Shown here: positions 5,876 through 31,488 of the stretch, piece by piece | Layout of the letters: every line of letters starts with the position of its first letter | How positions within the stretch are numbered: position 1 is the stretch's first letter | DNA from: Sulfuriferula nivalis | GTDB lineage: Bacteria > Pseudomonadota > Gammaproteobacteria > Burkholderiales > Sulfuriferulaceae | Direction: 5' to 3' | Length of the DNA: 45,416 bases | NCBI RefSeq assembly: GCF_009937995.1 | Contig: NZ_AP021882.1 | Coordinates: 1 to 45,416, forward strand | The notes under the pieces: model-generated | What the model was told of the DNA's origin: nothing | The model's database searches: none | What the model saw: the letters and a program-made list of their open reading frames with translations, nothing else | Program-made: the position numbers and the translations under genes

Positions 5876-6589
5876 TTATTTTAAGATTCCCATCATCGCG
5901 GCTCGGATTACTGCTGCTGTTTTATTTGGTGTATTTAGCTTAGTAATAGCATTACCAATATGAAAATTCACTGTACGCTCGGAGATGTTTAGGATGTCAG
6001 AAATTTCGCTGGATGTCTTTCCATCACCTGTCCATTTTAATACTTCGATTTCTCGAGGAGACAACTGTATCATGGACTCTGGCAACAGTTTTGGCGTTAG
6101 TCGCTGCGCCATCACTGAGTGTGTTGCCTGGGCGAGCCATGTCATTTTACACTCATTAGCCTGACGTTCCATTTCAGAAATGGGCTCCTCAGCACGGGCT
6201 AGCGTCAACATGCCTGACGCATTATTTATATCCCGACTCGACTGAGCCCAGCCAATCTTCAATCCGAAGGATTGCGCATCTTCCCAGAGTTCGCGAGCAG
6301 AGGAAAACAGACTCTCCGTCCAAATGACCGGTAACGTAGAGCGCATCCCATGCTGTACAGTCGGGTCAGCTGCAATATAATTCCGTTCCTGATATTGGTT
6401 TTGCCATGCTATGGGATAATTATTGAATAGGGCAAGCTTTGGTTGAGTTAACGGCAGTGGCATACGTAAACCATAAGCGCAATGGTCAAACCCAAGCTCA
6501 CGTCCTATGGACACGACCAGACAAAAGAGTTTGTCTTCGCACTCAACAGATAATAAGGCATGAAGCTGATTTTCTTGCCAGGTTGTCAT
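5876..6589 (-). CDS. luxR: LuxR-type quorum-sensing regulator
   Basis: From the ATG at 6589 (AAGGAA upstream) the product is 237 residues, the normal LuxR length. The N-terminal autoinducer-binding domain keeps the canonical pocket pattern: NYPIAW, QYQERNYIAADP and PVIW supply the conserved Trp, Tyr, Asp and Trp. The C-terminal part is a LuxR helix-turn-helix (LSPREIEVLKWTGDGKTSSE, then ISERTVNFHI). It should bind an acyl-homoserine lactone and activate promoters with lux boxes. It is divergent from the rsaM-luxI pair, and the ten-gene biosynthetic operon ends beyond luxI. The longer frame upstream lacks a ribosome site and is not used here. Confidence 0.93.
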   Translation of the reverse strand: MTTWQENQLHALLSVECEDKLFCLVVSIGRELGFDHCAYGLRMPLPLTQPKLALFNNYPIAWQNQYQERNYIAADPTVQHGMRSTLPVIWTESLFSSARELWEDAQSFGLKIGWAQSSRDINNASGMLTLARAEEPISEMERQANECKMTWLAQATHSVMAQRLTPKLLPESMIQLSPREIEVLKWTGDGKTSSEISDILNISERTVNFHIGNAITKLNTPNKTAAVIRAAMMGILK

Positions 6590-6630
6590 TTTTAGTTCCT
6601 TGATTGATATGTCTCTGCTGAAGTGGAGTG

Positions 6631-6662
6631 AATCCACTATACACTGTGGTGTCAACTTTACA
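6631..6662. promoter_or_regulatory. Possible LuxR operator in the luxR-rsaM intergenic region
   Basis: GGTGT and ACACC (about 6648-6664) are symmetric around a 7-bp spacer just upstream of luxR, inside a longer imperfect dyad between TACACTG and ATGTA. This is not a good lux box match; it may bind LuxR or RsaM. Weak prediction. Confidence 0.25.
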
Positions 6663-6760
6663 CCGTATACAATGTAGGAAAAACCCTTCCTGTTAAAGAT
6701 AACAATAGGTTTTTTTTTATGTCATGTTAGTGTAAGGAATTCTATTTTTTAAATACAATT

Positions 6761-7195
6761 ATGTTTAATTTAATTGACAACGATATGAGGCTGGGTAACT
6801 TTACTCTTATGGATAAGGTATCTTGGGATTTTTACGTGCGTATGACAGTGGAGACACTTACCTCGCTTCGGTTGAAGCATTTAATGTCTGCCATTGATTT
6901 AGATGAGCCGGATCAGTGCCAAAAAGGGACGGGCCTTACGCAGATATCTGGATATACCGAATGGGTTAGCGAGACCACACCAACCATTACGCTAGGGTGG
7001 GACTGGGAACTTAATACGCTGCAAGCACACCCATTCGTTTGCAGGGTTGGGGCACCACGAAGTAACATTATGATAGTTGACGATCTGCAGCAGGACTTAA
7101 AATATATTGAAAACTCAAGACTATTAGAGACTTTTATTGACCAACTCCAATGGCAGGAAGAGGTACGTGAAAGTGTTAATAATAAATATAGTTAA
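6761..7195 (+). CDS. rsaM: RsaM-like (DUF4902) quorum-sensing modulator
   Basis: This 144-residue protein lies between divergent luxR and downstream luxI, the position of rsaM in Burkholderia and Pseudomonas fuscovaginae. It has the signature blocks I associate with the DUF4902/RsaM family: GYTEWVS, a Trp-rich TLGWDW, and PRSNIMIVD, then a helical end with LLETFIDQLQW. In those systems RsaM restrains autoinducer production, although its biochemical mechanism is not settled. The start at 6761 is preceded by only a weak, distant AAGGA; an ATG at residue 9 is an alternative. It probably forms a luxI-controlling circuit with luxR. Confidence 0.78.
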   Translation: MFNLIDNDMRLGNFTLMDKVSWDFYVRMTVETLTSLRLKHLMSAIDLDEPDQCQKGTGLTQISGYTEWVSETTPTITLGWDWELNTLQAHPFVCRVGAPRSNIMIVDDLQQDLKYIENSRLLETFIDQLQWQEEVRESVNNKYS

Positions 7196-7202
7196 TCTGT
7201 CA

Positions 7203-7222
7203 ATCTGTTAATTCTAACAGTT
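7203..7222 (+). promoter_or_regulatory. lux box upstream of luxI
   Basis: The 20-bp dyad contains CTGTTA-ATTC-TAACAG, that is CTG, ten bases, CAG, exactly the spacing of lux/rhl boxes. It lies 63-82 bp before the luxI ATG. LuxR with its signal most likely binds here to give positive feedback on luxI. Confidence 0.75.
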
Positions 7223-7284
7223 ACCTAAAGTGCTGAAATCCAGCCTAATATCTCCACAACACAACGTGTTTTGGAGGAGTGGTG

Positions 7285-7839
7285 ATGCGAGTCATATCAG
7301 GTATACCAGAAGTATTTTCGGGAAGCTTATTCCCTGATATTTATCGTTATCGCCATAAAGTGTTCGTTGAGCAGCTGGGCTGGGATCTTCATACAAAAGA
7401 TGGTTTGGAACAAGATCAGTTTGATCGCGCAGATACAGTATATGTCGTAGCGCAGGATGAGGAAGGTAGTATTTCTGGATGCGCAAGGCTGCTTCCAACA
7501 AACCGTCCTTATCTCCTGGGGGAAGTATTCCCACAGCTTCTTAATGGCTTGACACCACCATGCTCTCATGAAATATGGGAGCTTTCACGTTTTGCCGCAA
7601 TCGATTTTAATAATCAGACCTCTTCAGCGTTAAATCAATTTTCTTCACCGGTTGCAATTGAATTACTTCGGGAATCTATTGCTTGTGCCGCTAGACATGG
7701 TGCAAAACACATCATTACCGTATCACCGATTGGAGTTGAAAGACTGCTGCGTAAGGCGGGTTTTCATGCGCATCGGGCGGGGCCGCCGATGGTTGTTGAT
7801 GGGCATGCGATATTCGCGTGCTGGATTGAACTTGATTAG
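7285..7839 (+). CDS. luxI: LuxI-family acyl-homoserine-lactone synthase
   Basis: The 184-residue enzyme makes an acyl-homoserine lactone from S-adenosylmethionine and an acyl-ACP or acyl-CoA. All hallmark residues are visible: R and F in YRYRHKVFV, W in LGW, E/D/D in EQDQFDRAD, R in CARLLPT, F in EVFPQL, and E and R in WELSRFA. The chosen ATG follows GGAGGAG (7273-7279) with good spacing; two GTG codons just before it are less likely. A lux box lies upstream and a terminator follows. The acyl-chain length cannot be read from sequence. Confidence 0.95.
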   Translation: MRVISGIPEVFSGSLFPDIYRYRHKVFVEQLGWDLHTKDGLEQDQFDRADTVYVVAQDEEGSISGCARLLPTNRPYLLGEVFPQLLNGLTPPCSHEIWELSRFAAIDFNNQTSSALNQFSSPVAIELLRESIACAARHGAKHIITVSPIGVERLLRKAGFHAHRAGPPMVVDGHAIFACWIELD

Positions 7840-7846
7840 CCATATC

Positions 7847-7868
7847 TTGGGGTAATCCCCCAATTTTT
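7847..7868 (+). terminator. Intrinsic terminator of luxI
   Basis: TTGGGG pairs with CCCCAA around a 5-nt loop, followed by ATTTTT. Oriented for the luxI transcript. The remaining sequence to 8098 holds no supported gene. Confidence 0.7.
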
Positions 7869-8098
7869 AGCTGGGGTTAAAAGTAGAGTCATGCGGCCAT
7901 GGCAATTTAGCACCAGCCGTGTTCGCACAAAAATTTAGCAAACAACAGGCTGGCATTTGAGGTGGGTGTGTCTACGGTAGTCAGGACAGGTCATACCGGC
8001 AGAGTCTTGGATTTGAAACATAAACCAGTCCAAGTTTTTGTCCGCATCCCCCTCATAATTACGTTTAAATGGTCATTATTCGATGAGCGTCAACACCC

Positions 8099-9079
8099 CT
8101 ATGCTACCAATGGAAGTGCATTTTTGTGATTACCGCGATTGCTTATTTTGGCCAGATAAAACCACTCATTTTGCAATTTTGCATTTGGATTCGGGAATAA
8201 AATTAAACCAGCATCTGATGCTCGAATTTCTTCCCCAGAATATCTTGTAGCGATTATGTCCCCTGCCTGCAGAGGAGAAAAATTTACCCAGTCATGGGTG
8301 AATTGATCTCCAAGATGCTCACGATCATAAACCTTGTATAGTTCATATACTTGGTGGGAAGGAACTTCAATAGATATCGACGCATCGATTATTTCTAAAT
8401 AAGTTAGTGCGTTAAGGATTGCAGTATATGCAATAACTTCTGCATTCGGATCCGTATGTTGACCACATTCTAACGTAACCCCATACTTGCCAAGTATTCG
8501 CATAGTCTCCGTGGTTCCAATACCATGACTGGGGGAAAAATTAGTTATGCCTTCAGTATTAGAAGACCCAACCCGATCAAGCCTTTTCTGAATACCTCCA
8601 GTGAATGCATTCAACCAGCCATAAATTATTTTTTTAGGTCCTAACTGCAAAGCAAGTTCGAACTCTTCATTAGCAAAGGAGAAGGGCTCCAGCAGTCCAT
8701 TATTATTTTCTGGGCCAATGAATATAAAAGGGCATCCGGGAGCTGCAAAAGAATGAAGGTCCAAGAGAACATCGTGTCTTTGCAAAATTGGAATTAGCAA
8801 ATTTGATATGTGATCTTCATTATTTTCAGGATTTGAAACAATTTTCATATTGCGATTTAAATTACGATCCCCTTCTCTTGATAACTTATGATAGGCGAGT
8901 TGGTTCGTAACCGGAATAAAGGTTACACCACCTTTGACTAATTTAATCTTATTGGAGTCTATCTCTTCCATCACTCTTCGTATGGCTCGTGTACCGCAGG
9001 TCTCATTACCATGGACTGCGCCAGTAACAAGAAATTGGGAGCCCGTGGCTAGAGCTTGATATGTATGGCTTTTAAGCAT
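8099..9079 (-). CDS. AstE/aspartoacylase-like zinc hydrolase
   Basis: This 326-residue protein belongs to the succinylglutamate desuccinylase/aspartoacylase family (M14-type fold), which removes an acyl group from an N-acyl amino acid. Zinc ligands are visible as H and E in AVHGNETCG (residues about 21-29) and the later H in LDLHSF, and the substrate-arginine segment appears as GDRNLNRN. It is the last gene of the ten-gene operon, one base after the stop of the ATP-grasp gene. In the cluster it could remove a protecting acyl group late in the pathway, or hydrolyse the product as self-protection. Substrate unknown. Confidence 0.85.
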   Translation of the reverse strand: MLKSHTYQALATGSQFLVTGAVHGNETCGTRAIRRVMEEIDSNKIKLVKGGVTFIPVTNQLAYHKLSREGDRNLNRNMKIVSNPENNEDHISNLLIPILQRHDVLLDLHSFAAPGCPFIFIGPENNNGLLEPFSFANEEFELALQLGPKKIIYGWLNAFTGGIQKRLDRVGSSNTEGITNFSPSHGIGTTETMRILGKYGVTLECGQHTDPNAEVIAYTAILNALTYLEIIDASISIEVPSHQVYELYKVYDREHLGDQFTHDWVNFSPLQAGDIIATRYSGEEIRASDAGLILFPNPNAKLQNEWFYLAKISNRGNHKNALPLVA

Positions 9080-9080
9080 A

Positions 9081-10340
9081 TTAATTTGTGATTACTACAT
9101 CAATTCCAGAGACAATCTGGGCCGAATACTCCGCAAGCTCCTGCGATGTTGCGGCATCAAGAATAACCCATCCAAGCCTGGCTTCAGGACCTGTCATTTT
9201 GCCAAGTTTGGCACCAATTTTGTGTTCAAGGACAAGCTCTCTGACAGTTGCAGGAGAGGATAAATCAAAAACATGGTCTCTAGCGTAATACTTGTTTTCA
9301 GGAAAGCAATTAACTACGATATTCTCATCATGGATCGAAACCTTTTTAAGAGTTCCAAGGGTATGACGCAGATATATTTGTTGAGTGTGCCGAATAGGTC
9401 GAGGATATTGTACGAGCTCACCTAAAACCGTTCTAATTATAGCCTCCTCAATTAATTGACCGGTTGCTAATTGATACATTGCAAATATCCCGTCACCGGG
9501 AGGCCGAGCTGCAATCTCCATAAGGTATATCTTACCCTCTGCCGTAATCCTATATTCAGCGTGAGAGATGCCATCGAGAAATCCCATTCGTTTTAAAATT
9601 TTTTGATTTATCACATAAGCTGCTTCAATCCGATCCTGTGCAATTTTTTGGGCAGGTATGTTATAGCCCATCTCCAAGTGATGCCCATCTATAAAAAGAT
9701 TTTCTTCTTCTGTAAGGTTGTCGTATTTCACTACACCATTACAAACGATGGTTTCAATTGAAAAGTCCTTACCTTGAATATATTCTTCGAAATTCAATTG
9801 TTCTCTGTAATTGAATTCTTCTAAAGCCTGTAGCGCTGCACTCTCATCTTCAACTAAAACTATTCCTTGTCCGCCATGTTTGTCTGAGGCTTTAATAACA
9901 GCAGGATATGCAATATCCGTTGGAAGCTCCGAGCCTTTTGAGATATAGCTAAAAGGGGGGCTCCATTGTGAGAAATAAGCTCTTTGAAGGATTTTGTTGC
10001 TTGCGATGATGCTTGCCTTGATACTAGGGCCCTTCAACTGAAGGTAATCAATTGCAATAGCACTGCTAAGTGTAAACTCTTCAATTGTATTTAATGCACC
10101 CTTGATATCGTATTTTATGGCCCACTGTTTGCACTGATGAAGAATCGCAGATAAATCTGAGCCTTCCGTATAGCAAACTTCGGATTTGACTGGCGTATAT
10201 CCGGCATCATTTCTGTAACAGTCGCTACTTGGCAAATCGATTATCAGAACATTAAGATCTAACTCCGCCAAAACTGGGATGAATTTGTGGTAAAGCGAAC
10301 GGGTAAACCCTCCAAAAAGTATAAATGCCGACTTACGCAT
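9081..10340 (-). CDS. ATP-grasp ligase (second in cluster)
   Basis: The 419-residue protein has a pre-ATP-grasp N-terminal domain and an ATP-grasp core with the glycine-rich loop KASDKHGGQGIVLV (about 150-165), the downstream metal/ATP segment LMEIAARPPGDG (about 272-283) and the EEYIQGKDFSIE strand. It is of the carboxylate-amine ligase type related to L-amino-acid ligases and carnosine-synthase-like enzymes, which join amino acids through an acyl-phosphate. It overlaps the phzF-like gene by 8 nt. It probably makes a peptide or pseudopeptide bond in the cluster product. The substrates cannot be deduced. Confidence 0.87.
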   Translation of the reverse strand: MRKSAFILFGGFTRSLYHKFIPVLAELDLNVLIIDLPSSDCYRNDAGYTPVKSEVCYTEGSDLSAILHQCKQWAIKYDIKGALNTIEEFTLSSAIAIDYLQLKGPSIKASIIASNKILQRAYFSQWSPPFSYISKGSELPTDIAYPAVIKASDKHGGQGIVLVEDESAALQALEEFNYREQLNFEEYIQGKDFSIETIVCNGVVKYDNLTEEENLFIDGHHLEMGYNIPAQKIAQDRIEAAYVINQKILKRMGFLDGISHAEYRITAEGKIYLMEIAARPPGDGIFAMYQLATGQLIEEAIIRTVLGELVQYPRPIRHTQQIYLRHTLGTLKKVSIHDENIVVNCFPENKYYARDHVFDLSSPATVRELVLEHKIGAKLGKMTGPEARLGWVILDAATSQELAEYSAQIVSGIDVVITN

Positions 10341-11277
10341 TTGCTACCTCCCCTACATAAGAAACATCAATCTTAGTAAGGATATCGCTAAGGATTTCAC
10401 CTGTGCCGATAACGACCGCGTCTCCTCCTAGTTCGACATTACCAATACCAGATATTGAAGGGATTATTTTCACTTGTAACATACTTTTCCTGCCAATTTG
10501 GGCCCCTTGGTGAATTGACCAAGTTTGAATCTCCATGGATTTATTTTTTTGCGCTAGGTAACTACCTAGCGCAGCAGCTGCTGCGCCAGTTGCCGCATCT
10601 TCAGCTTGTCCAAATGCTGGTGCGAACATACGCACAAAAGCCTCATGTTTTTCACAATCTACAAAATATGGATAAACTTGAGGTGCTGGCGACTTACTAA
10701 TTAACAACTCCCATTCATTCAAATTCATAGATATATTTTCCAGCACTTGTCTGGATTTAACTGGGATCATTGTAAATGGAACCCCGCAGGTTACGTATGC
10801 TGGTTCAATAAAGGAAGTTTCTATCTGATCTGACTTAACATTTAATAGCGTAGCAAGTTGATCCAAAGAATGCGGCATTCTTTGGATTACAGCTGGTCCA
10901 ACTTTAAGAAATGCAGAAAAGGTGCCATCCTGCGATTTCATTGCTTTAACAGGTATCAATCCAGCAACTTCGTCAAATACAAGCTCAACTGAATATTCAT
11001 CAGGCCCAAGACTGGATGATGCCAGAGCTACAGCAGTACCAATTGTAGGGTGGCCTGCAAACGGTAACTCCTTTGTTGGCGTAAATATGCGCACTTGATG
11101 GGTAGCAGTTCTTTTCGCAGACGGCACTACAAATGCTGTCTCAGATAAATTAAGTTCTTTGGCTATCTTTTGCATTAGAGACGAAGAAATGCCTAGTGCA
11201 TCTGGGAACACAGCCAAAGGATTTCCACCAAATGGCGTGCCAGTGAAAACATCAAGAAGCATGAATTGATAGTTCAT
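10333..11277 (-). CDS. PhzF-family isomerase/epimerase
   Basis: The 314-residue protein has the duplicated diaminopimelate-epimerase-like fold of the PhzF family. Visible landmarks are LLDVFTGTPFGGNPLAVF at the N-terminus, the catalytic Glu in LSETAFV (about 45), LPFAGHPTIGTA and the C-terminal EDAATGAAAAALGSYL. Family members catalyse isomerization or epimerization by proton transfer without cofactor. PhzF itself acts in phenazine synthesis, but no other phenazine genes are present. In this cluster it may epimerize or isomerize an amino-acid intermediate. Overlaps the MFS gene by 4 nt (ATGA). Confidence 0.9.
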   Translation of the reverse strand: MNYQFMLLDVFTGTPFGGNPLAVFPDALGISSSLMQKIAKELNLSETAFVVPSAKRTATHQVRIFTPTKELPFAGHPTIGTAVALASSSLGPDEYSVELVFDEVAGLIPVKAMKSQDGTFSAFLKVGPAVIQRMPHSLDQLATLLNVKSDQIETSFIEPAYVTCGVPFTMIPVKSRQVLENISMNLNEWELLISKSPAPQVYPYFVDCEKHEAFVRMFAPAFGQAEDAATGAAAAALGSYLAQKNKSMEIQTWSIHQGAQIGRKSMLQVKIIPSISGIGNVELGGDAVVIGTGEILSDILTKIDVSYVGEVANA

Positions 11278-12488
11278 TTATCTAGGCCCTCAGAAGCTAT
11301 ATGGATTTTTATAACGTCACGAGCAGTCATAGTCATAATAAATATCACAATATGTACTAGGACAATTAAAAATCCAAATGACTCCAAAGCGTTCGATACC
11401 CCTTTAGAGTCAGCTACTATACCAAGTAGAATACTTGGTACTGAAAAACCAACATACGCGGCAAGAAAATAGCCTGAAACAGATCTTGCCTTGTCCAATT
11501 TAGCTTTTTCAACTACGTATGTTAGACCTCCTAAATAAGTAAATCCATAACAAGCCGCACCCGCTATAGATGACCCCAATAATAAATAAAGTATGCTACC
11601 TTGTTGAGCACCATAAATAAGCGTCAGATAGCCACTAGGGACCAAAACACAACCGATAGCCATGTTAATTTTAGGTGTAAGTCGCCGTGCCATTGGTTGG
11701 AACACTATGCCTGCAATATTTATGAGAAATAGTGCCGGACCGGTCCAAGTTGCTAAGTCGTGAATTGCCAATTGAGCCGGAAGCAAAGCTATTACTAAGC
11801 CTGAGACGCTCCATGCGGCACAAATTGCAAGATATGGAGAGATATTTCCAGAGATAAATTTAGGAATACGCGTTAGTGGTACATTCCTGAGTTTATTTGA
11901 AGTTGGTATCTTCCACATTCCCATCATTACAATAGGAAATGCAACTAATGCAATCCAAAAACTAATTGGAATTCCTTCTTGAGAGTACATTAAACTGATT
12001 GTCGTTGCGAGTGCACCACCTCCAAAGCCTAAAGAGGAAGCGAGAGCCACATGAGCTGATATAAACTTTTCCGTCCCTGGGCGTTGCTCGCTCAGGAATG
12101 CAGTGACAGTGCCCATTGCCAAGCCGACGCTAACACCTTGGAGCACTCTCGCAAAGAACAGTGAGTTCATGGATGAAAAAAAAATCATCAACAATGTTGC
12201 TAATAGAGAACAACTTAATGCTGTAATGATAATTAATTTCCGGCCCATTCGATCAGAAGCTCCAGCAAATCCAAATAATACAGGGACAAGTCCTGCAACA
12301 TAGGCAGCAAAGGCTAATGACGATACAGCGTGAGAAGCATGATTAATTTCCGCATATTGGTGATATAAAGGCACCTGCAAGTTTACAGCTCCAGTAATCA
12401 ATAACAAACTAAGAACTGTCCACCAATACTTATAACTTTCTAGGGCGCTATATTTATTTAGATTATTGGGCATATGTGGTTTCTTCAT
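11274..12488 (-). CDS. MFS transporter, probable product exporter
   Basis: This is a 404-residue major facilitator with about 12 hydrophobic spans. The cytoplasmic loop 2-3 motif A is clear (GASDRMGRKLIII, about residues 79-91), and the N-terminus is short and cytoplasmic. Placement inside the biosynthetic operon, with overlaps on both sides, suggests export of the cluster product and perhaps self-resistance. Import of a precursor cannot be excluded. The start at 12488 overlaps the upstream gene by 26 nt; an ATG five codons later is possible. Confidence 0.88.
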   Translation of the reverse strand: MKKPHMPNNLNKYSALESYKYWWTVLSLLLITGAVNLQVPLYHQYAEINHASHAVSSLAFAAYVAGLVPVLFGFAGASDRMGRKLIIITALSCSLLATLLMIFFSSMNSLFFARVLQGVSVGLAMGTVTAFLSEQRPGTEKFISAHVALASSLGFGGGALATTISLMYSQEGIPISFWIALVAFPIVMMGMWKIPTSNKLRNVPLTRIPKFISGNISPYLAICAAWSVSGLVIALLPAQLAIHDLATWTGPALFLINIAGIVFQPMARRLTPKINMAIGCVLVPSGYLTLIYGAQQGSILYLLLGSSIAGAACYGFTYLGGLTYVVEKAKLDKARSVSGYFLAAYVGFSVPSILLGIVADSKGVSNALESFGFLIVLVHIVIFIMTMTARDVIKIHIASEGLDK

Positions 12489-13332
12489 TGTTCAAGAAGG
12501 AATAAATCTCCTCAACGTAAGCAATTTCATCTTTTGGATCGCGACCTCTAGTTTCAAAAGACATGATTCCTTTCCAGCCACTCTCACTCATCGCGGTTAG
12601 AAACCCACTGATGTCTAAAGTGCCCTTACCTAGCGCCATATGTGTATCGTGAATACCGTCATTATCGTTTAGACTGACCGCGGCAATCCTATCCTTCAAT
12701 TTATTAAATGTAATGATTGGATCACCTGATATATGCTCATGACCAACGTCAAGTATCATCCTAACATTAGCTGGTGAGCCATCAAGTAGCTCCTCGTACT
12801 CTTTCAACTTAGAATAAACTGTATAAAATGGATGCTTATCGGAGTAATACTCCAAATTTTCCACCCAGATTTCGACACCTTTTTGCTGTGCGTATTCAGC
12901 TAGAGCAATGACAGATGATTTGTAAGCGCTGAGTGCACCCACCTTATACTCATTAATCATGTTATGAGTAAAAAGGCCTGATCCGTGTACGATAAGGGGT
13001 GCATTAAGCTTCTGGGCAAGGTCAATTTCAAGCGTAGCATATTTAACGGCAGCCTCCCTCACTAAGTCGAGTTCACTACTGAGGGGGTTGCGATAATTCC
13101 CGTGAACTATGGGGTGGACGCCTTTCGATGCAGCAAGAGTGATGAGTTTTGATACTTTATCATCACAAAAACTGGTCACACTATCCACTCGGGAGGCGCA
13201 CTCTACATAAAACATCTTACATCCATTTTTAGTTGCAAACTGTATGCTTTCTGCATAAGGCAAGCTTCGCTGAGCAGCAAATCCTGTTATAAATGGAATT
13301 GAGCTGGAAGGGGATTGGGAGGGCTGTGTCAT
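12463..13332 (-). CDS. Xylose-isomerase-like TIM-barrel isomerase/epimerase
   Basis: From the ATG at 13332 (GGAGA ribosome site) the product is 289 residues. It has the pattern of the sugar phosphate isomerase/epimerase family (AP endonuclease 2 fold). Probable metal ligands are E in VENLEYY, D and H in MILDVGHEH, and E in MSFETRGRD near the C-terminus, with H residues in VHGN and VHGSG. Such enzymes isomerize sugars or hydroxy-keto acids with a divalent metal. Its role in the cluster is unclear; it could act on a hydroxylated amino-acid precursor. The longer frame start at 13368 would overlap the lyase gene and has no better ribosome site. Confidence 0.82.
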   Translation of the reverse strand: MTQPSQSPSSSIPFITGFAAQRSLPYAESIQFATKNGCKMFYVECASRVDSVTSFCDDKVSKLITLAASKGVHPIVHGNYRNPLSSELDLVREAAVKYATLEIDLAQKLNAPLIVHGSGLFTHNMINEYKVGALSAYKSSVIALAEYAQQKGVEIWVENLEYYSDKHPFYTVYSKLKEYEELLDGSPANVRMILDVGHEHISGDPIITFNKLKDRIAAVSLNDNDGIHDTHMALGKGTLDISGFLTAMSESGWKGIMSFETRGRDPKDEIAYVEEIYSFLNNEETTYAQ

Positions 13333-13357
13333 AGTTTTCTCCAAGTTAATTAGATAT

Positions 13358-14833
13358 TTATTGTGCAACTGTTTCGATAGTTTTTTTTACAAGTAATTGC
13401 CTAGTTTTATCAGATTTGTTACAGCGATTAATGGCTTTTGTTAACTTAGTTCTTATTTCTACTAGAGTTTCATTGAAGCATATCCGTTCGTTAGACCAAC
13501 CTTTATGTCCAGGTCCTCCACCAAACATCGTTGAAGCGACAATATTTATGGGTGAGAACTTTTCACGACACTCATCCTTGGTTAATTCTTTGCACAAATA
13601 CTCTGCGGCTATTTGGACTCCATTCATCCCTTCAGATTCTGCGGCAGTAATCTTTTCGCCAATCTGATGGTGTGCTGATCTAAAATCATATCCCTCATTT
13701 AAAACAAGGTATTCAGCCAAATTAGTAGCACAAACATTTCCATCAATAGCAGCTTGAAGCATCCGCTCAGAATCTATCTCAAGTACTACAATGTGTCTTT
13801 CAAGAATGAGCAATGCCGATCGAATTTCCTCCATGGCTAGGTCAAATCCTTTGATAGCTTCTGTACCTACTGCGACCGAGTTTCCATAGGGGGTAGCATG
13901 CATCGCCAGCAAGGCATGCTGAAAGGCAGCGGCTGGCGACCCACTTCGGCCCTTAACGTGTTCGAGTAGAAAAGGGTTTCGCTTCTGGGGCATCATTGAA
14001 CTCGAGCCAACCAATTCGTCCGGAAGACGAATGAATCCAAACTCGTGAGTAGACCATAACAGAAGGTCCGCTGCCAACCGACTCAGAGTCAATCCCATAA
14101 TCGCCGAAGAAGATAACACTCTCAATATGTAATCTCTACTAGCGATAGCATCAATCGAATTATTGGCAGATGAGGAAAATCCGAGTAATGATGCGGTATA
14201 GTTTGGGTCGATGCTAATTGAAGTGCCCCCCCCCGCGCCCGCGCCAAGCGGAGAGATACTAAGCATACCCTCGATAACTAAAAGGGCTTGTATATCACGT
14301 ACAAGAGCATAAGAAATCCCATTAAAGTAATGGGCTAAAGTGATTGGAAAAGCTGGTTGGTAGTGCGTATAGCCTGGCAATACTGCATCTCCATTTTTTT
14401 TTGCTCGCATTTCTAACGACTCAATCAAATTAAGGGCTGCTTTTATTAAGGAGAACAGCTCATTCCGTGTCTTCATTTTAGTAATAGTTGCCGAGAGGTC
14501 ATTACGAGATCTTCCTGTCTGCAACATTCCACCTACGCTGATTCCAAGCTTTTCTATCAAATAGTTTTCGTACATCAAATAGAGGCCTCTAGCAGGATGC
14601 ACATCCTTAAGTGGCTCGAAGTCGCTTCTTAAGAGATATCCTATTTCGGCAAGTAATTTAGCCGAATCTGCTTGATTTATTAGACCGCATTTAAGCAACA
14701 TCAAAACATGAGCTTGATCAACTTCTGCTATATAACCTAATTCTGTAAGCAGCACTTTACGGTCAGGTGTTTTGAAGATAATTGATTGCAATACCGGGTC
14801 AATAGTTTTCTTTATACGACCTGTGTCATCCAT
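13358..14833 (-). CDS. Argininosuccinate-lyase-like enzyme
   Basis: The 491-residue protein belongs to the fumarase/aspartase superfamily and keeps the argininosuccinate lyase landmarks: TGRSRNDLSATI (about 105-117), GYTHYQPAFPITLAHY (about 150-165) and the flexible serine loop GSSMMPQKRNP (about 275-285). The chemistry would be release of fumarate from an N-(1,2-dicarboxyethyl) adduct, leaving a free amine. There is no argininosuccinate synthase in the cluster, but the neighbouring kinase and PLP enzyme could supply an aspartate adduct, as proposed for diaminobutyrate formation in friulimicin and pacidamycin clusters. Overlaps the upstream ATP-grasp gene by 8 nt. Confidence 0.9.
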   Translation of the reverse strand: MDDTGRIKKTIDPVLQSIIFKTPDRKVLLTELGYIAEVDQAHVLMLLKCGLINQADSAKLLAEIGYLLRSDFEPLKDVHPARGLYLMYENYLIEKLGISVGGMLQTGRSRNDLSATITKMKTRNELFSLIKAALNLIESLEMRAKKNGDAVLPGYTHYQPAFPITLAHYFNGISYALVRDIQALLVIEGMLSISPLGAGAGGGTSISIDPNYTASLLGFSSSANNSIDAIASRDYILRVLSSSAIMGLTLSRLAADLLLWSTHEFGFIRLPDELVGSSSMMPQKRNPFLLEHVKGRSGSPAAAFQHALLAMHATPYGNSVAVGTEAIKGFDLAMEEIRSALLILERHIVVLEIDSERMLQAAIDGNVCATNLAEYLVLNEGYDFRSAHHQIGEKITAAESEGMNGVQIAAEYLCKELTKDECREKFSPINIVASTMFGGGPGHKGWSNERICFNETLVEIRTKLTKAINRCNKSDKTRQLLVKKTIETVAQ

Positions 14834-16049
14834 TTAGTGGTTCCCATATAAAATCAGGAATGGAGCATGCCTCTTTGAGTGCATGTAAGATTTTAATTCT
14901 GGAGTCTCCTGCAGCAATAACATGCCCTATACGATCCCGGAAATCATTATGTACTTGTCGCTTGTCCCCCACGTGTGCATAAAGCTGAGCATCAACCAGA
15001 AACGGCTGATTATATAAAGCTTCCCAGTTAGATATGCTAATGAGCTTTCCACAGTCTGGAATCATAAAAAAACGTATACCTGCATGACTAGTCAAGCCAA
15101 TTTGCAGTTTAACTTCGTACCTAGCTGCCTTTGCTATAGTCGCAGATACCAGATCGTTTCCAGTACAAATTTTTATCAAAGCGGGGATGAATCCTCCAGC
15201 CAATCGGGGATTCACTTCAATAATTACTGGCCCGCGCGATGTCATCCGCAATTCGACATGTGTTGGACCCCATTGGAGACCTAAAGCCGCGATGGCAGCT
15301 TGAGCACATTTCATTAGTTTTTCTTTAACATCATCAGGCACAGCCGCGGGCATGTCGTGGCCAATCTCGACGAAAAACGGCATTTCACTAAGATGTTTTT
15401 CAGTAACAACTATTGGCTGACCATCAAAAGCCTCAACCGAATATTCTTTACCTGTCAAATAAGCTTCTATAAGAACCCCACCAATTGGCTGTCCTCGTTC
15501 GTTGTGTCCTTGCGCTAATAAGGATTTCGCCCATGCGATGGTATCGGCAAGATTGTCAGAAAAGCGAACTCCAAAGCTTCCAGAACCAGACTGAGGTTTT
15601 ATAACAACGTTAGGCCCAGCTTTTTTATAAGCCATTTCAATCTCATGTTGTGAGTTGACAAGTATTGATATTGGCATAAGAAGTCCAGCTGCAGATAACT
15701 TTTGCCTCTGTACATATTTCTGACGACAATCTGCAATCGCAGTACTTGAACCTGATGGAAGGTTCAGTATATTAGCCAATTCAGCCGCCATGCCGACAAA
15801 GTAATCCGAGGAGGAATAGACACCAGCGATACCTTCAGGTGCGTTTTCATCAATCCAAGTGAGAAGTGCTTGTACTGACCCTGTGTTAACTTGATGTATC
15901 TGAGTACCTTCAGGAAATTTTCCATCATATTTCTCTGGCGATTCGGCCAATACCACAGGATTGAACCCAAAATCTTCGGCTGATTGAATAAAAAGTCGCC
16001 CAGTCCCACTGGTATTGCTTTCAACAAAAATGAACTTTTTAATTTTCAT
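14826..16049 (-). CDS. ATP-grasp ligase (first in cluster)
   Basis: The 407-residue protein has an ATP-grasp core with NVVIKPQSGSGSFGVRF (about 145-161), the strand GVLIEAYLTGKEYSVEAF, and the metal-binding block VIIEVNPRLAGGFIPAL (about 280-296). It is a carboxylate-amine ligase of the L-amino-acid ligase/argininosuccinate-associated type. The start overlaps the PLP enzyme stop by 4 nt. With a second ATP-grasp enzyme downstream, the cluster could join at least three units or make an intramolecular bond, like DcsG in cycloserine synthesis. Substrates unknown. Confidence 0.88.
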   Translation of the reverse strand: MKIKKFIFVESNTSGTGRLFIQSAEDFGFNPVVLAESPEKYDGKFPEGTQIHQVNTGSVQALLTWIDENAPEGIAGVYSSSDYFVGMAAELANILNLPSGSSTAIADCRQKYVQRQKLSAAGLLMPISILVNSQHEIEMAYKKAGPNVVIKPQSGSGSFGVRFSDNLADTIAWAKSLLAQGHNERGQPIGGVLIEAYLTGKEYSVEAFDGQPIVVTEKHLSEMPFFVEIGHDMPAAVPDDVKEKLMKCAQAAIAALGLQWGPTHVELRMTSRGPVIIEVNPRLAGGFIPALIKICTGNDLVSATIAKAARYEVKLQIGLTSHAGIRFFMIPDCGKLISISNWEALYNQPFLVDAQLYAHVGDKRQVHNDFRDRIGHVIAAGDSRIKILHALKEACSIPDFIWEPLNG

Positions 16050-17104
16050 GCCATGACCTCTACATTTGATCGATTGGCTTGTATAACTTCTTGTAAAGTA
16101 CGCCTACCCCAGTCCATCATTGTCCATTGCTTCATTTCCTTTAAAGGTGAGGAGGTTATTAAAGGTTCTGGGAAAGCTCTATTTAAGTTCAGGTTTTGGG
16201 CATCAACCCAGTTGTCATCAAAAACATTGTCGAGGTATCGATACCCTTCATCTGCACATATAAAAACTGTAGTGAGTTTTGGATGTCTATCTGCCCAATG
16301 TTTGGCAACTTTGTAGGCAGCGCCACCAGTTGCACCTACAAATAGTCCATGTTGCTTATGTATGTTTCGAGTAGCTGCAAACGTTTCTTCGGCGCTAAGC
16401 CAATGCACTTCATCAAAAATAGTATGGTCGAGTATGGCAGGCATAATGCTATTGCCCAGTCCGCGAACGAGACGCTTTCCGTCAGGCTGACCAAATAAAA
16501 TACTATTAATTGTATCTACCCCAATCGCCTGCATGTCAGGGTTAACTTTGCGCAGAAATAAACTCGTGCCACACATAGATCCTCCTGATCCTACAGTGCC
16601 AATTAGACAATCAATTTTGCCAAGTGCTGTAGCAAAATATTCTGCTAATAAAGCATATGAGCTTGGATTGTTATGATTTTCGTATTGCATAGGCCAAAAA
16701 CTGTCCTTGTGTTTATCAAGGTGTTCGTTTAGTCTATCAAGCCTGGCTCTCTGATAGCCGCCAACTTTGGATGGCTCCGCTACGATATCCACTACAGCCC
16801 CAAGGCTTTCAATTCTATTTTTTAATAAAGGATCCAACACTGGGTCACTAACTAAAATGCATTTGTAACCATAATGGTTGCATAGCATTGCTAACGCCAA
16901 ACCAAAAGTACCGGAAGTGGTTTCAGCTATAGTGCTCCCTGGTCGAATTTTCCCTTCCTTCCGTGCATTATCAAGGATGAACTTGGCAGGTAGAAGTTTC
17001 ATTAGGAAGAAACTGGCCGCATATAAGTTATCTTGCAACTTAAATAGTTTAGGGTAGAGTACCGCATCCTGAAAACATGAATGAATTGAAGGCTGCAGAC
17101 TCAT
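16046..17104 (-). CDS. Cysteine-synthase-like PLP enzyme (beta-replacement)
   Basis: From the ATG at 17104 (4-nt overlap with the kinase stop) the product is 352 residues of fold-type II PLP enzymes. The likely Schiff-base lysine is in FLMKLLPAKFIL (about 35-46). The phosphate-binding glycine loop is GTVGSGGSMCGTS and the ring-N region GATGGAA is present. The substrate loop reads TTSGTFGLALA, where classical family members have SSGN-G, so the usual asparagine is replaced. The tail of about 60 residues extends past the normal core. Likely reaction: replace a phosphate made by the neighbouring kinase with the amine of aspartate. SbnA (phosphoserine plus glutamate) is the closest logic I know. 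Confidence 0.88.
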   Translation of the reverse strand: MSLQPSIHSCFQDAVLYPKLFKLQDNLYAASFFLMKLLPAKFILDNARKEGKIRPGSTIAETTSGTFGLALAMLCNHYGYKCILVSDPVLDPLLKNRIESLGAVVDIVAEPSKVGGYQRARLDRLNEHLDKHKDSFWPMQYENHNNPSSYALLAEYFATALGKIDCLIGTVGSGGSMCGTSLFLRKVNPDMQAIGVDTINSILFGQPDGKRLVRGLGNSIMPAILDHTIFDEVHWLSAEETFAATRNIHKQHGLFVGATGGAAYKVAKHWADRHPKLTTVFICADEGYRYLDNVFDDNWVDAQNLNLNRAFPEPLITSSPLKEMKQWTMMDWGRRTLQEVIQANRSNVEVMA

Positions 17105-18084
17105 TGTGACTCCCAGGCAGTATTGAAATACCACATACTTTCGATGCCAAGATTAGTCAGGCCTTTCTTGGTAATATTTATCCATTGGGCAAGGTTTGAA
17201 TCTGATGGATCGAAAATAAATCCTGCTACGCTTCCACTGTGAGCAACTTGTAATCCGCATGCACCATTCTCCGAAAGTAAATGTAGTAGTCCATCGAAAT
17301 TTGGTTTGGGCAAATGTTTCTGATTAAGTTTAGCACTGGCCGTAGCTACTTTTCCCATCAAAGATATTGATTGCGTCCGTACTGCAGCCCTCAATGAGCC
17401 GATCATTGGCCTAAAAGCACCTAATTCTTGCCAGCCATATTCAGGCAAAGGCATCTGAATTGTTGACACTCCCGAACCGTTAGGGTATGTGTTAAATCCG
17501 ATAATGAATGCTGGAGGGAGCTTTTGAACCAATGATTCAAGGATAATCCCCTCACGTTGGCAAAACACAACAGCCTGATCTTCAAACATTATCGAGTCTG
17601 AGGCTATTTCAGCCATAACAGAAATTTCCGAAATTTCAATAGCTGTTAATGACTGATGAAATGCTGCGGCAACAGCGCGAATTGTGGCCACGACGTCGCT
17701 GGTTGATGATCCTAAACCCATTTCAGCCGAAGCATCAGATACAACCTCAAGGAATCCCCCATAGCCCTCAATTCCAAGGTAAAGCATGGTAAGAGCTGCA
17801 GCTCTTTTGGATTTGGATTTCCATTCTTGCTCAATCACAAGCTCCCCGTTATAAACCGGGATGAACTTTGAGTGAGATTTAATACTTGGCCATGGGAGAG
17901 TAACTAAAAATCGACGGATGTTTTCTCCTTCGCGTTCGATAGCTCCCTGAAGAACTTCCCCATGGTGGCCGATAGCGGAACCAGTACCCGTATTAAGTTT
18001 AATCTTGTCGACACTCACCCGCTGGGGGAATATTTGTATATTCGACAAACGAAATCTATCGTCAATCGTTGAAGTTTGAGGCAT
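17101..18084 (-). CDS. GHMP-family kinase, probably acting on threonine or serine
   Basis: From the ATG at 18084 (GGAGG upstream, 2 nt after the preceding stop) the product is 327 residues. The ATP-binding motif EMGLGSSTSDVV (about 130-141) and the C-terminal GACGLQVAHSGSVAGFIFD block are diagnostic for GHMP kinases, and the N-terminal GSAIGHHGEVLQG resembles PduX-type L-threonine kinases. It would make an O-phospho amino acid that activates the hydroxyl for replacement by the next gene's PLP enzyme. The amino-acid choice (Thr, Ser or homoserine) is inferred. Confidence 0.87.
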   Translation of the reverse strand: MPQTSTIDDRFRLSNIQIFPQRVSVDKIKLNTGTGSAIGHHGEVLQGAIEREGENIRRFLVTLPWPSIKSHSKFIPVYNGELVIEQEWKSKSKRAAALTMLYLGIEGYGGFLEVVSDASAEMGLGSSTSDVVATIRAVAAAFHQSLTAIEISEISVMAEIASDSIMFEDQAVVFCQREGIILESLVQKLPPAFIIGFNTYPNGSGVSTIQMPLPEYGWQELGAFRPMIGSLRAAVRTQSISLMGKVATASAKLNQKHLPKPNFDGLLHLLSENGACGLQVAHSGSVAGFIFDPSDSNLAQWINITKKGLTNLGIESMWYFNTAWESQ

Positions 18085-18086
18085 GC

Positions 18087-19184
18087 TCAGGCCTCCACAG
18101 TCGCGTGTATTGGATTCACAGCTTGGCAAATGTCGGGCTGATTTGTTGTGATTTCAATCAAATACTGCAATACGTGGTCATATTGGATTTTAGCTGCCGC
18201 AACCGCCATTTGTGCTCCAGCTACTACGTGTTGGAGTTCCTTAGGCGTAAGAGTGGGAGTCTGATGTAACAACCCGTCAATAAGTTCTTCCGTATGTACA
18301 GGGTCGATTGAAATATGCGCGGTGAAATAGATTTGAATGTCATCTTTCAAAAAGTTCACTCGATTCATACCCGCCACAATTTCCTCAAAGTGCGGCTCGA
18401 CCCACCCCTCATTTGTCAAAAACCACCCATACTTCATGTACTTCAAGCCTGGGCGGGAAAGAAGGATATTAAATATATTTGTGGTAATTTTAGTAAACCA
18501 AGGTCGGTTATTTGTCCGGTAGTTCATGAAATCCTGCTTTGACCCCAGCCCATCTAGTAACCTACGTAGCCAGTAGGTATGAAAATTACGTAGGCTGCCA
18601 TGGCCTAGCTCATCCCATAGGTTGGATACAGTGCTTATCTTCATTAATCCTTGCATACCAACACTTAACATAGCCACTTCATCGTCGACTACCTCATTTC
18701 GAATAATTTCGTTCCAAAGAAATACCCTCATGGCTTCTGAACTTGCATTATTCCGGAGATAGGGAAACAGTGAATGTGTTAGGCTTGGGTTTGCAGCGGC
18801 TATTTGCCTTAAATGGCCTACTGCGTCCTCAACAGTAGTAATTTCTTTTAAGTGGGGCAACTGTAGCCAATAATCTTTGGCTTCGCGTTCAAGTACTATC
18901 TTTGCAGCTATGATCGCAATCTCAAACTCATCATCAATATCTAAATATAAAGGACTATCCTGATATCCAAAAAAATAACCTGAAACAATACCTAGGTACT
19001 CATTGAGAACCCGCGAATGCTCTAGAGAGTCATTACGTAAATTATTAAGAAACTCCTCCTGGTTATCCCTATTCATATTTATAAATTGTTTAAAACCTTT
19101 ATCCATCGCTTGATGTACTACTGGAGGCCAATCCCAGTTTTGTAATGGTGGGATCTGATTAACGATTTTTTCGATATTGAGCAT
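18087..19184 (-). CDS. Haem-oxygenase-like diiron oxygenase
   Basis: This 365-residue, mainly helical protein is of the iron-containing redox enzyme family (haem-oxygenase-like diiron oxygenases, as SznF, UndA and BesC). Candidate metal ligands lie in LEREAKDYW, in LWDELGHGSLRNFH (E and H, spaced as in the family) and in HISIDPVHTEEL (D and H) near the C-terminus. Such enzymes carry out N-oxygenation, C-C cleavage or desaturation of amino acids. It is the first gene of the operon, 70-90 bp downstream of a lux-box-like site. It is the best candidate for the step that gives the product its unusual chemistry. Confidence 0.83.
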   Translation of the reverse strand: MLNIEKIVNQIPPLQNWDWPPVVHQAMDKGFKQFINMNRDNQEEFLNNLRNDSLEHSRVLNEYLGIVSGYFFGYQDSPLYLDIDDEFEIAIIAAKIVLEREAKDYWLQLPHLKEITTVEDAVGHLRQIAAANPSLTHSLFPYLRNNASSEAMRVFLWNEIIRNEVVDDEVAMLSVGMQGLMKISTVSNLWDELGHGSLRNFHTYWLRRLLDGLGSKQDFMNYRTNNRPWFTKITTNIFNILLSRPGLKYMKYGWFLTNEGWVEPHFEEIVAGMNRVNFLKDDIQIYFTAHISIDPVHTEELIDGLLHQTPTLTPKELQHVVAGAQMAVAAAKIQYDHVLQYLIEITTNQPDICQAVNPIHATVEA

Positions 19185-19272: not shown

Positions 19273-19574
19273 TATAAACCTGATTGGAATGAAACAGAGC
19301 TCGATGGGTAAAGTGGACCCCAATTTCAGGACAATGAATTAAGCTGGTAACCTGCTGTAAAAAGGAGCAGGTTCTGGACTTGAGCTATGCCTTACTGTGT
19401 CCTGGCCATCTTAATAATTATAATAATTAACAGCACTGCCAATACGGGTACTGAAACACCTCTGAAACAGGCGGAAACAGACTGTAACCAGGTATCGTCA
19501 ACACAAGCCCCCTCCCGGCGTTATTCGCAGTGTAGCGCCTGCTATTCAACAAAATAACCGTTATGGAGATTGTC
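19273..19574. other. Intergenic region without a supported gene
   Basis: Contains GTGGACCCCAATTTCAGGA (about 19314-19332) and the dyad AACCTGCT/AGCAGGTT (about 19351-19375), which look like an insertion-sequence end or remnant, but I cannot name the family. Nothing else is visible apart from the ribosome site of the next gene. Confidence 0.35.
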
Positions 19575-20042: not shown

Positions 20043-20600
20043 TCATCCTCTCCGCAGATACTGATACAGTGTTTCCCGGCTAATACCAAACTCACGGGCA
20101 AGCTGCGCTTTCTGCTCACCTGCAGCAGCGCGTGTGCATAGATCGGCGGCCTGTTCAGGCGACAACGCTTTCTTTCGCCCACGGTAGGCGCCACGCTGGC
20201 GCGCCAGCGCAATGCCTTCACGCTGGCGTTCGCGTATCAGAGCACGTTCGAACTCGGCAAAGGCGCCCATCACTGACAGCATCAGATTCGCCATTGGGGA
20301 ATCCTCGCCTGTAAAGAGCAGTCCCTCCTTAACAAACTCGATGCGTACGCCTCGACCTGTCAGCTTCTGCACGAGACGACGCAGATCGTCAAGGTTACGT
20401 GCCAGCCTGTCCATGCTGTGCACCACTACCGTGTCACCTTCACGCACAAAAGCCAACAGCGCATCCAGCTCTGGACGCCGGGTGTCCTTGCCTGAAGCCT
20501 TGTCGGTGAATAGCCTGCTAACCTTGACCTGCTCTAATTGCCGCTCAGGGTTCTGGTCAAAGCTGCTGACTCGCACATAACCTATACGTTGACCTTGCAA
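20043..20600 (-). CDS. tnpR: Tn3/Tn21-type resolvase, orphan
   Basis: A TTG start at 20600 with GGAG just upstream gives 185 residues, the normal length for Tn21-group TnpR, beginning QGQRIGYVRVSSFDQNPERQ. The catalytic serine is in VRVSS (about 9-10), with the arginine-rich YVRVSSFDQN, DRLARNL and LIRERQREG blocks of serine recombinases and a C-terminal helix-turn-helix (AQLAREFGISRETLYQYL). No transposase gene accompanies it. The res site would lie in about 20640-20780. With the inverted repeat at 21994-22031 it suggests the remains of a Tn3-family element. Confidence 0.93.
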   Translation of the reverse strand: MQGQRIGYVRVSSFDQNPERQLEQVKVSRLFTDKASGKDTRRPELDALLAFVREGDTVVVHSMDRLARNLDDLRRLVQKLTGRGVRIEFVKEGLLFTGEDSPMANLMLSVMGAFAEFERALIRERQREGIALARQRGAYRGRKKALSPEQAADLCTRAAAGEQKAQLAREFGISRETLYQYLRRG

Positions 20601-20779
20601 GATGACTCCAAAAGTAAAAGTGTCAGGCTGAAATCTATTACCTTTGGCAGATTGTGTCAATAAATATGGTTTACGGTTCTATCCTGACGGTGTTCGCATA
20701 GTATGCCTGACATCCGGTTAGGGTATACTTCATTCGGACAAAAAATCCGGCTTGATGACGGGATGCATAGAGGGAGTGC

Positions 20780-30082: not shown

Positions 30083-30093
30083 CAGGAGTATTG

Positions 30094-30960: not shown

Positions 30961-31486
30961 AGTTCAGATACAAAAAATGAAAACCCTGCTCCTCATTCTC
31001 GTACTATGCCTGCCGCTGGCAGGCTGTTTTGAAGAACCTACCGCGACCGTTTCCTATGGTGCGATTAGTTATATCGACGAACCTATTGTCTCCATCATCA
31101 TCAACGGCGAAGGCGGCATACTCGGCGTTAACCCTCACGCTGGTGGCGCAGGCGGCATGTGCTGCGTAGTGATTCCCGAGCATTGGCACCCTGGCCTTAA
31201 AGCCACGATTAAGTGGCAAATGGATGGTACGTGGCTAAAGGACAGCCAAGGCAAACTGGTCATCCGCAACGGCAAAAATGTCCTTGTCCAAGGCCCATGG
31301 AAACAAAAAATCGTTGATATACCCGAATACAAGGAAGCAGATACGGTTGCGATTAACTTCTTCCCGCATGATGACGTAAAGGTGTTGGTAACCAAATGGG
31401 GGCCAGGCTCTCCCAATTATCCCTATCCAGTTCCAGACCCTAACCATTGTTGGGATGGTATTGAAAACATGTGTAAAGGAAAATAA
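30950..31486 (+). CDS. DUF3304 lipoprotein, likely immunity protein
   Basis: From the ATG at 30950 (GGAGG just before; an ATG at 30977 is also possible) the product has a lipoprotein signal peptide with lipobox LAGC and a mature part typical of DUF3304: AISYIDEPIVSIIINGEGG, GGMCCVVIPEHWHPG, and a C-terminal Cys pair around NHCWDGIENMCKG. DUF3304 lipoproteins sit beside Tle-type effectors and are thought to neutralise them in the periplasm. It overlaps the DUF4123 gene by 11 nt. Confidence 0.82.
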   Translation: MLNKVQIQKMKTLLLILVLCLPLAGCFEEPTATVSYGAISYIDEPIVSIIINGEGGILGVNPHAGGAGGMCCVVIPEHWHPGLKATIKWQMDGTWLKDSQGKLVIRNGKNVLVQGPWKQKIVDIPEYKEADTVAINFFPHDDVKVLVTKWGPGSPNYPYPVPDPNHCWDGIENMCKGK

Positions 31487-31488
31487 TT

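What the first reader, a model, noticed from the sequence alone, without database searches (positions are those of the whole stretch)
8099..19184. Ten-gene quorum-linked biosynthetic operon for a probable diamino-acid-derived product
Seen: ten minus-strand genes from 19184 to 8099 with gaps or overlaps of at most about 25 bp. Family knowledge: a threonine-type GHMP kinase, a cysteine-synthase-like PLP enzyme and an argininosuccinate-lyase-like enzyme match the trio proposed to make 2,3-diaminobutyrate in friulimicin and pacidamycin clusters (phosphorylate the hydroxyl, replace with aspartate, release fumarate). Inference: the two ATP-grasp enzymes then form amide bonds, PhzF-like and TIM-barrel enzymes change stereo- or positional chemistry, the diiron oxygenase oxidises, and the MFS exports. 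I know of no described cluster with all ten families beside luxR-rsaM-luxI.
Basis: partly seen in the sequence, partly recalled or inferred. Interest (0 to 1): 0.93.

Follow-up and report, generated by a model that had tools for sequence, protein, structure and literature searches.

The report
Oxidised diamino-acid peptide operon beside quorum genes
A plasmid-like DNA molecule carries ten tightly packed genes beside quorum-sensing genes; they are predicted to turn threonine into a rare 2,3-diamino acid, would likely oxidise one of its nitrogens and join it to another amino acid, and relatives of the oxygenase-family gene lie near genes of a known diamino-acid pathway in many distant bacteria, which makes the prediction testable.

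Summary
In detail: ten minus-strand ORFs, 19184 to 8099, overlapping or 1 bp apart, with luxR-rsaM-luxI next door. The diamino-acid idea gains support and is corrected. Kinase, PLP enzyme and argininosuccinate-lyase-like protein travel with the first ATP-grasp enzyme as a four-part unit: it is in all ten best lyase hits on public plasmids, with ATP-grasp fused to the lyase in five, and to the PLP enzyme in two further loci. That ATP-grasp is therefore inferred to serve diamino-acid assembly, not a later amide bond. Kinase-linked PLP enzymes form one clade (16 of 16 rows) apart from SbnA (19 of 19). The oxygenase is a heme-oxygenase-like diiron-type protein, closest by sequence and predicted fold to the N-oxygenase HrmI. 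In 22 of 30 other loci its relatives lie near SbnA and/or SbnB genes (2,3-diaminopropionate synthesis); in two (Trinickia, Reinekea) beside the four-part unit. Two diamino-acid supplies beside one oxygenase family suggest that the diamino acid is its substrate. Product, oxidation site and quorum control are untested; no quorum genes were found within about 10-17 kb of the two related clusters. New variant of a known kind (oxygenase plus ATP-grasp peptide clusters).

The parts
18087..19184 (-). Gene A: heme-oxygenase-like diiron-type oxygenase (HDO), predicted N-oxygenase
17101..18129 (-). Gene B: GHMP kinase, predicted to phosphorylate threonine (or a similar hydroxy amino acid)
16046..17134 (-). 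Gene C: PLP enzyme of the kinase-linked clade, predicted beta-replacement
   Evidence: PALP; SbnA-like but under the SbnA cut-off (229 vs 350 bits); with 15 other kinase-linked PLP enzymes one clade apart from 19 SbnA rows, support 100/99
14826..16049 (-). Gene D: ATP-grasp ligase of the diamino-acid unit
   Evidence: ATP-grasp_4 + LAL_C2; homologue fused to the lyase in 5 loci and to the PLP enzyme in 2
13358..14833 (-). Gene E: argininosuccinate-lyase-like enzyme, predicted to release fumarate from a diamino-acid precursor
   Evidence: Lyase_1 + ASL_C2, argH model 298.6 bits over its 279.5 cut-off; TGRSRND, GYTHYQ and SSSMMPQKRNP motifs; the chromosome has a separate argH with 634 bits, so E is an extra copy
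12463..13368 (-). Gene F: xylose-isomerase-like TIM barrel, accessory isomerase/epimerase (inferred)
   Evidence: PF01261; homologue in the Reinekea cluster 40%, none found in the Trinickia genome
11274..12488 (-). Gene G: MFS transporter, likely exporter
   Evidence: PF07690; 64% homologue in the Trinickia cluster
10333..11277 (-). Gene H: PhzF-family isomerase
   Evidence: PF02567, TIGR00654 above cut-off; in all three clusters
9081..10340 (-). Gene I: second ATP-grasp ligase, predicted to form the peptide bond
   Evidence: ATP-grasp_4, sub-cut-off LAL_C2; in all three oxygenase-plus-unit clusters; in the 18 plasmid loci only weak matches (21-26%) lying on the D genes
8099..9079 (-). Gene J: AstE/AspA-like zinc amidohydrolase, possible de-acylating or self-protection enzyme
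   Evidence: PF24827; HGNE and DxHS motifs; no match in the Trinickia or Reinekea genomes (an empty answer of that search is weak evidence)
5876..6655 (-). luxR-type regulator
   Evidence: Autoind_bind + GerE
6761..7195 (+). rsaM-type regulator
   Evidence: DUF4902 (the name rsaM is recalled for this family)
7279..7839 (+). luxI-type acyl-homoserine-lactone synthase
   Evidence: Autoind_synth

Best explanation
The ten tightly packed genes are predicted to form one biosynthetic operon whose product is likely a small exported peptide-like compound built around an N-oxidised 2,3-diamino acid. Proposed steps, all inferred: (1) B phosphorylates L-threonine (serine or another beta-hydroxy amino acid is possible). 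(2) C exchanges the phosphate for a nitrogen nucleophile, with L-aspartate as the likely donor. (3) D, an ATP-grasp ligase tied to C and E by gene fusions, and E, which releases fumarate, finish the transfer of aspartate nitrogen and leave a 2,3-diaminobutyrate unit; which bond D makes is open (perhaps it couples the aspartate that E later removes as fumarate). (4) A, a diiron-type oxygenase closest to HrmI, oxidises a nitrogen of the diamino unit, most likely the beta-amine, to a hydroxylamine, oxime or nitro group. (5) H (and F here) isomerise or epimerise, I adds an amino acid, G exports, and J removes a protecting acyl group or protects the producer. luxR-luxI beside it may switch it on at high cell density. 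Shown: gene content, order, conservation, clade membership, catalytic motifs and, by a confident model, the fold of A. Not shown: any reaction, the product, or the regulation.
Confidence: 0.5

Rival explanations
1. The operon makes a 2,3-diamino-acid peptide, but the oxygenase breaks or forms a carbon bond (nitrile, desaturation, decarboxylation, ring) rather than oxidising nitrogen.
For: HDOs are catalytically diverse; validated ones mostly act on fatty or amino acids, with C-C cleavage and desaturation among the outcomes (PMC13108848 section 4); MboA, an HDO beside two ATP-grasp ligases, desaturates a tripeptide to an alkyne (PMC13185094, passages); FlcD ties with RohS and SznF among the second-rank fold matches.
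Against: HrmI, an N-oxygenase, stands 7.6 Z units above the next fold match and far ahead by sequence.
Confidence: 0.3
2. D and E together make a primary amide: D couples aspartate to a carboxylate and E removes fumarate, in the way that purine synthesis makes its carboxamide; the product would be an N-oxidised diamino-acid amide.
For: D fuses to E in 5 loci and to C in 2, as if D's product were E's substrate; in four of the five rhizobial loci kinase, PLP gene and the D-E fusion stand alone as a compact set. The purine parallel is recalled.
Against: In all five Streptomyces and Kitasatospora loci read, the unit sits beside NRPS or amino-acid-adenylation genes, which would need a free carboxylate.
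Confidence: 0.2
3. An ordinary member of the proposed 2,3-diaminobutyrate route as in friulimicin and pacidamycin, with the other genes making a known antimetabolite peptide already described elsewhere.
For: Same three enzyme families as the recalled trio; an argininosuccinate lyase and a cysteine synthase lie in a gausemycin-like cluster, and gausemycins hold 2,3-diaminobutyric acid (PMC12471526, passages; that paper does not assign the two genes to it in the passages seen).
Against: No paper found with this combination (none; none fitting in 14, 106), in an open-licence library only; no NRPS in the operon; the oxygenase family is absent above 29% identity from the plasmid collection.
Confidence: 0.15
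4. The operon is quorum-independent: the lux genes belong to the plasmid's own regulation and are neighbours only.
For: No luxR, rsaM or luxI homologue in about 10 kb before and 17 kb after the Trinickia and Reinekea clusters; luxR-luxI pairs also sit near kinase genes on Mesorhizobium, Bosea and Paracoccus plasmids, in the last followed by trb transfer genes.
Against: luxI ends about 260 bp from the operon end in the window; other possible lux targets on the contig were not looked for.
Confidence: 0.4

Closest known systems
2,3-diaminobutyrate trio of friulimicin and pacidamycin (recalled; pacidamycin said to make it from threonine and ammonia, PMC10714638 passage)
   Same: kinase, cysteine-synthase-like PLP enzyme and argininosuccinate-lyase-like enzyme together
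   Different: here a fourth enzyme (ATP-grasp D) is part of the unit; no NRPS; a diiron-type oxygenase goes with it. I could not compare sequences with the friulimicin or pacidamycin proteins, so they may hold the ATP-grasp too
SbnA/SbnB 2,3-diaminopropionate synthesis (staphyloferrin B)
   Same: SbnA-fold PLP enzyme; the oxygenase's relatives elsewhere sit near SbnA/SbnB
   Different: C lies outside the SbnA clade and under its cut-off, no SbnB in the operon, a kinase and a lyase instead
HrmI/BelK and RohS heme-oxygenase-like N-oxygenases
   Same: fold, the six putative ligands, highest sequence and structure similarity
   Different: 19% identity to HrmI; partner genes point to a vicinal diamino acid, not lysine or (recalled for RohS) 2-aminoimidazole
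Mangotoxin-type clusters (HDO plus ATP-grasp ligases; PMC13185094 says at least 25 unique such clusters)
   Same: an HDO with two ATP-grasp ligases

Membership tests
Heme-oxygenase-like diiron oxygenases (HDO) | heme-oxygenase fold close to solved HDOs | tested here: met
Heme-oxygenase-like diiron oxygenases (HDO) | three His and three carboxylate ligands | tested here: met
   E192, H202, E259, H290, D294, H297 invariant in 33 of 33 and matched in the HrmI alignment; metal binding itself not testable
HrmI/RohS-type N-oxygenase | oxidises an amine nitrogen | not testable with these tools
   nearest relatives only
2,3-diaminobutyrate trio | kinase, PLP and lyase genes together, with catalytic motifs | tested here: met
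2,3-diaminobutyrate trio | lyase distinct from the host's housekeeping argininosuccinate lyase | tested here: met
   chromosomal argH 634 bits against 298 for E
2,3-diaminobutyrate trio | same clade as the friulimicin/pacidamycin enzymes | not tested
   those sequences were not at hand
2,3-diaminobutyrate trio | forms 2,3-diaminobutyrate and fumarate | not testable with these tools
   needs enzyme assay
SbnA/SbnB 2,3-diaminopropionate synthases | PLP enzyme in the SbnA clade and over the TIGR03945 cut-off | tested here: not met
   229.4 bits against 349.95; separate clade 100/99, with one long SbnA branch (L016) flagged next to it
SbnA/SbnB 2,3-diaminopropionate synthases | SbnB (ornithine-cyclodeaminase family) partner in the operon | tested here: not met
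   no such family among the ten proteins
HDO plus ATP-grasp peptide cluster (mangotoxin kind) | HDO and at least one amino-acid-ligase-type ATP-grasp in one cluster | tested here: met
   genes A, D, I
Quorum-controlled cluster | lux-type operator before the operon | tested here: inconclusive
   only an A+T palindrome at 19411-19430 found; the 6659-6676 palindrome is not repeated before the operon
Quorum-controlled cluster | lux genes kept beside related clusters | tested here: not met
   none in L002, L006, L059, L060, i.e. about 10 kb before and 17 kb after the two clusters; genes further away not tested

The most novel reading that the evidence does not exclude
The oxygenase family founds a new enzyme class: N-oxygenases of vicinal diamino acids, fed by two different partner sets (SbnA/SbnB making 2,3-diaminopropionate; kinase, PLP, ATP-grasp and lyase making 2,3-diaminobutyrate) in at least five phyla, and yielding beta-nitro or beta-oxime amino acids as small exported warheads; in this plasmid the warhead is built from threonine, capped by an ATP-grasp ligase and released under quorum control.
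Probability: 0.25. Interest if true: 0.85.

Novelty: new variant of a known kind. Interest (0 to 1): 0.64.

Why it matters
If right, gene neighbourhood names the substrate class of an uncharacterised oxygenase family found here in Pseudomonadota, Actinomycetota, Myxococcota, Cyanobacteriota and Thermomicrobiota, and predicts a new group of N-oxidised diamino-acid metabolites. It also adds an ATP-grasp enzyme to the proposed 2,3-diaminobutyrate route. A side result gives it ecological reach: the related kinase and PLP genes of Paraburkholderia phymatum's symbiosis plasmid are among the genes strongly lowered in nifA-mutant bean nodules (log2 change -8.24 and -6.85; PMC8305402 table passages; same locus tags). 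The main claims can be tested with five purified proteins.

Tried and rejected
Rejected: C as an SbnA orthologue. Rejected: D as simply one of two peptide-bond formers (fusions). Rejected: E as the host's housekeeping argininosuccinate lyase. Considered and left open: ammonia instead of aspartate as nitrogen donor; serine instead of threonine. Led nowhere: a lux box before the operon; near matches of the plasmid (one search gave about 76% identical matches whose listed rows are ISPa38-type transposon DNA and neighbours, another the parA region and short transposase-like stretches); the RuMP methylotroph marker TIGR03128 gave only a sub-cut-off match, so the host was not identified beyond 16S-region DNA about 90% like Burkholderia; paper searches for the gene combination (searches gave none); a lipothrenin paper (PMC10616846, passages) whose N-oxygenase is of the AurF kind, not an HDO. 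The GHMP model is weak (pLDDT 65), so one search shows the fold only. Many neighbour ORFs of high-GC loci are probably wrong-frame; I used only those scanned.

Rows dropped before counts: the HDO tree has 29 of 31 possible rows (L030, L031 too short), with long-branch flags on seven rows incl. L006 and a composition flag on the window's row. The PLP tree leaves out fragments in L029 and L031, the partial gene of L045, and L055-L058, which were fetched later; it flags L016's SbnA as a long branch meeting the kinase-linked rows. The quartet count looked at 10 of 271 plasmid records with a lyase match, the ten best; the kinase search (102 records) and the ATP-grasp search (402 records) were followed up in 5 records (H97, H98, H101, H110, H119) and 3 records (H160, H169, H197). 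The SbnA background covers 15 of 30 loci, chosen by me (16 handles given, one not held).
Full report
Observation. Searches confirm ten minus-strand ORFs from 19184 to 8099 with overlaps or a 1-bp gap, and searches give their families. The tenth gene, 8099-9079, is a divergent AstE/AspA-like amidohydrolase with the HGNE and DxHS motifs. luxR, rsaM-type DUF4902 and luxI lie at 5876-7839. The window is contig C2 from base 1 of a 3.44-Mb genome, 45416 is the contig length given for the window's own protein, and it starts with parA. The host's 16S region is about 90% like Burkholderia. In a sample of its order the oxygenase is rare: 2 of 399 genomes including its own, and none of the 12 same-genus genomes listed; 1 other of 369 in a sample of Reinekea's class and none other of 299 in a sample of Trinickia's family.

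Related clusters. A scan of genome contigs with an alignment of 33 oxygenases gave 30 loci. Trinickia fusca (L002) has A, B, C, D, E, G, H, I in the window's order at 52-72% identity; Reinekea (L006) has I, A, B, C, D, E, F, H at 31-51%. Genes A, B, C, D, E, H, I are common to all three. F was not found in the Trinickia genome and J in neither genome at E 0.001 (an empty answer of this search is weak evidence). The three oxygenases form one clade, 100/98 (L006 is a long branch).

The four-part unit. The ten best of 271 plasmid records with a match to E were read: Azospirillum (2), Streptomyces (3), Rhizobium, Mesorhizobium and Sinorhizobium (5). All ten hold homologues of B, C, D and E within about 9 kb. 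In the five rhizobial records D and E are one protein, following kinase and PLP gene; in four of them no further biosynthetic gene adjoins, while in Rhizobium gallicum a second D-like ATP-grasp gene follows (31%). In Streptomyces globosus and Kitasatospora C and D are one protein, with kinase and lyase beside it and NRPS genes around. Such fusions are the usual sign of linked steps; hence D is placed in diamino-acid assembly. The kinase-PLP pair also occurs without D and E in four loci; in a fifth, Paracoccus, only part of the PLP gene is matched. A Pantoea plasmid has B-C-D without a lyase in the fetched stretch. None of the 18 plasmid loci has a homologue of A, F, H or J at E 0.001, and gene I matches there only weakly (21-26%), on the D genes. 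E passes the argH cut-off, but the chromosome has its own argH with 634 bits. The PLP tree separates 16 kinase-linked rows from 19 SbnA rows with 100/99 support; window position 76, in the TSGT substrate loop, is T in 16 of 16 kinase-linked rows and N in 18 and S in 1 of 19 SbnA rows.

Against. HDO chemistry is varied, identity to HrmI is 19%, FlcD is as close as RohS and SznF, six loci lack local diamino-acid genes, D's bond is unknown, and the kinase's substrate is not distinguished. The quorum link is positional: no luxR/rsaM/luxI homologue in about 10 kb before and 17 kb after the Trinickia and Reinekea clusters; the palindrome at 6659-6676 lies between luxR and rsaM and is not repeated before the operon; the only strong dyad before the operon is A+T-only, expected in about 5% of base-shuffled sequences.

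Place among the known. Clusters with an HDO and ATP-grasp ligases are a described kind: the mangotoxin paper counts 1447 HDO sequences near an ATP-grasp ligase and at least 25 unique clusters (PMC13185094, section 7 and passages). I could not see whether this one is among them. The kinase-PLP-lyase idea for 2,3-diaminobutyrate is older and is recalled here, with partial support in print. New here, as far as my searches reach, are the four-part unit with its two kinds of fusion, its partnership with this oxygenase, and the two-supply argument. I rate it a new variant of a known kind.

Noticed in passing
L043, Paraburkholderia phymatum pBPHY02, 5881-8529: Homologues of the kinase and PLP gene; the same locus tags fall by log2 -8.24 and -6.85 in nifA-mutant bean nodules (PMC8305402 passages), so this pair is strongly NifA-dependent in symbiosis and its product is unknown.
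   Followed up: partly
L044 (Mesorhizobium huakuii), L046 (Bosea vaviloviae), L045 (Paracoccus saliphilus): Kinase (with PLP gene in the first two, part of one in the third) within about 4 kb of a luxR-luxI pair, with threonine synthase (L044, L046) or transketolase (L044, L045) beside it; L046 also has an AstE/AspA-family gene, not detectably similar to gene J.
   Followed up: no
L037, L056-L058 (rhizobial plasmids); L055: Compact sets of kinase, PLP enzyme and fused ATP-grasp-lyase with no other biosynthetic gene adjoining, probably the minimal form of the unit; in L055 a second ATP-grasp gene follows.
   Followed up: partly
window 27053-33147: A type VI secretion cassette on the plasmid-like contig: VgrG with DUF2345, DUF4123 adaptor, DUF3304 protein and a Tle1-like phospholipase effector.
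   Followed up: no
window 36056-39034, 20043-20660, 39719-40276: Tn3-family transposase (about 76% DNA identity to ISPa38-annotated elements) and two resolvase-type recombinase genes (the first by Pfam; the second by eye), signs of a mosaic plasmid.
   Followed up: no
L009 and L010 (Streptomyces hydrogenans, S. xanthophaeus): SbnA-SbnB-oxygenase loci with three weak ATP-grasp matches upstream, a likely related peptide pathway starting from 2,3-diaminopropionate.
   Followed up: no
window 19411-19430: Nearly perfect A+T palindrome TTAATAATTATAATAATTAA in the region before the operon; chance expectation about 5% for an 18-mer in base-shuffled sequence.
   Followed up: partly
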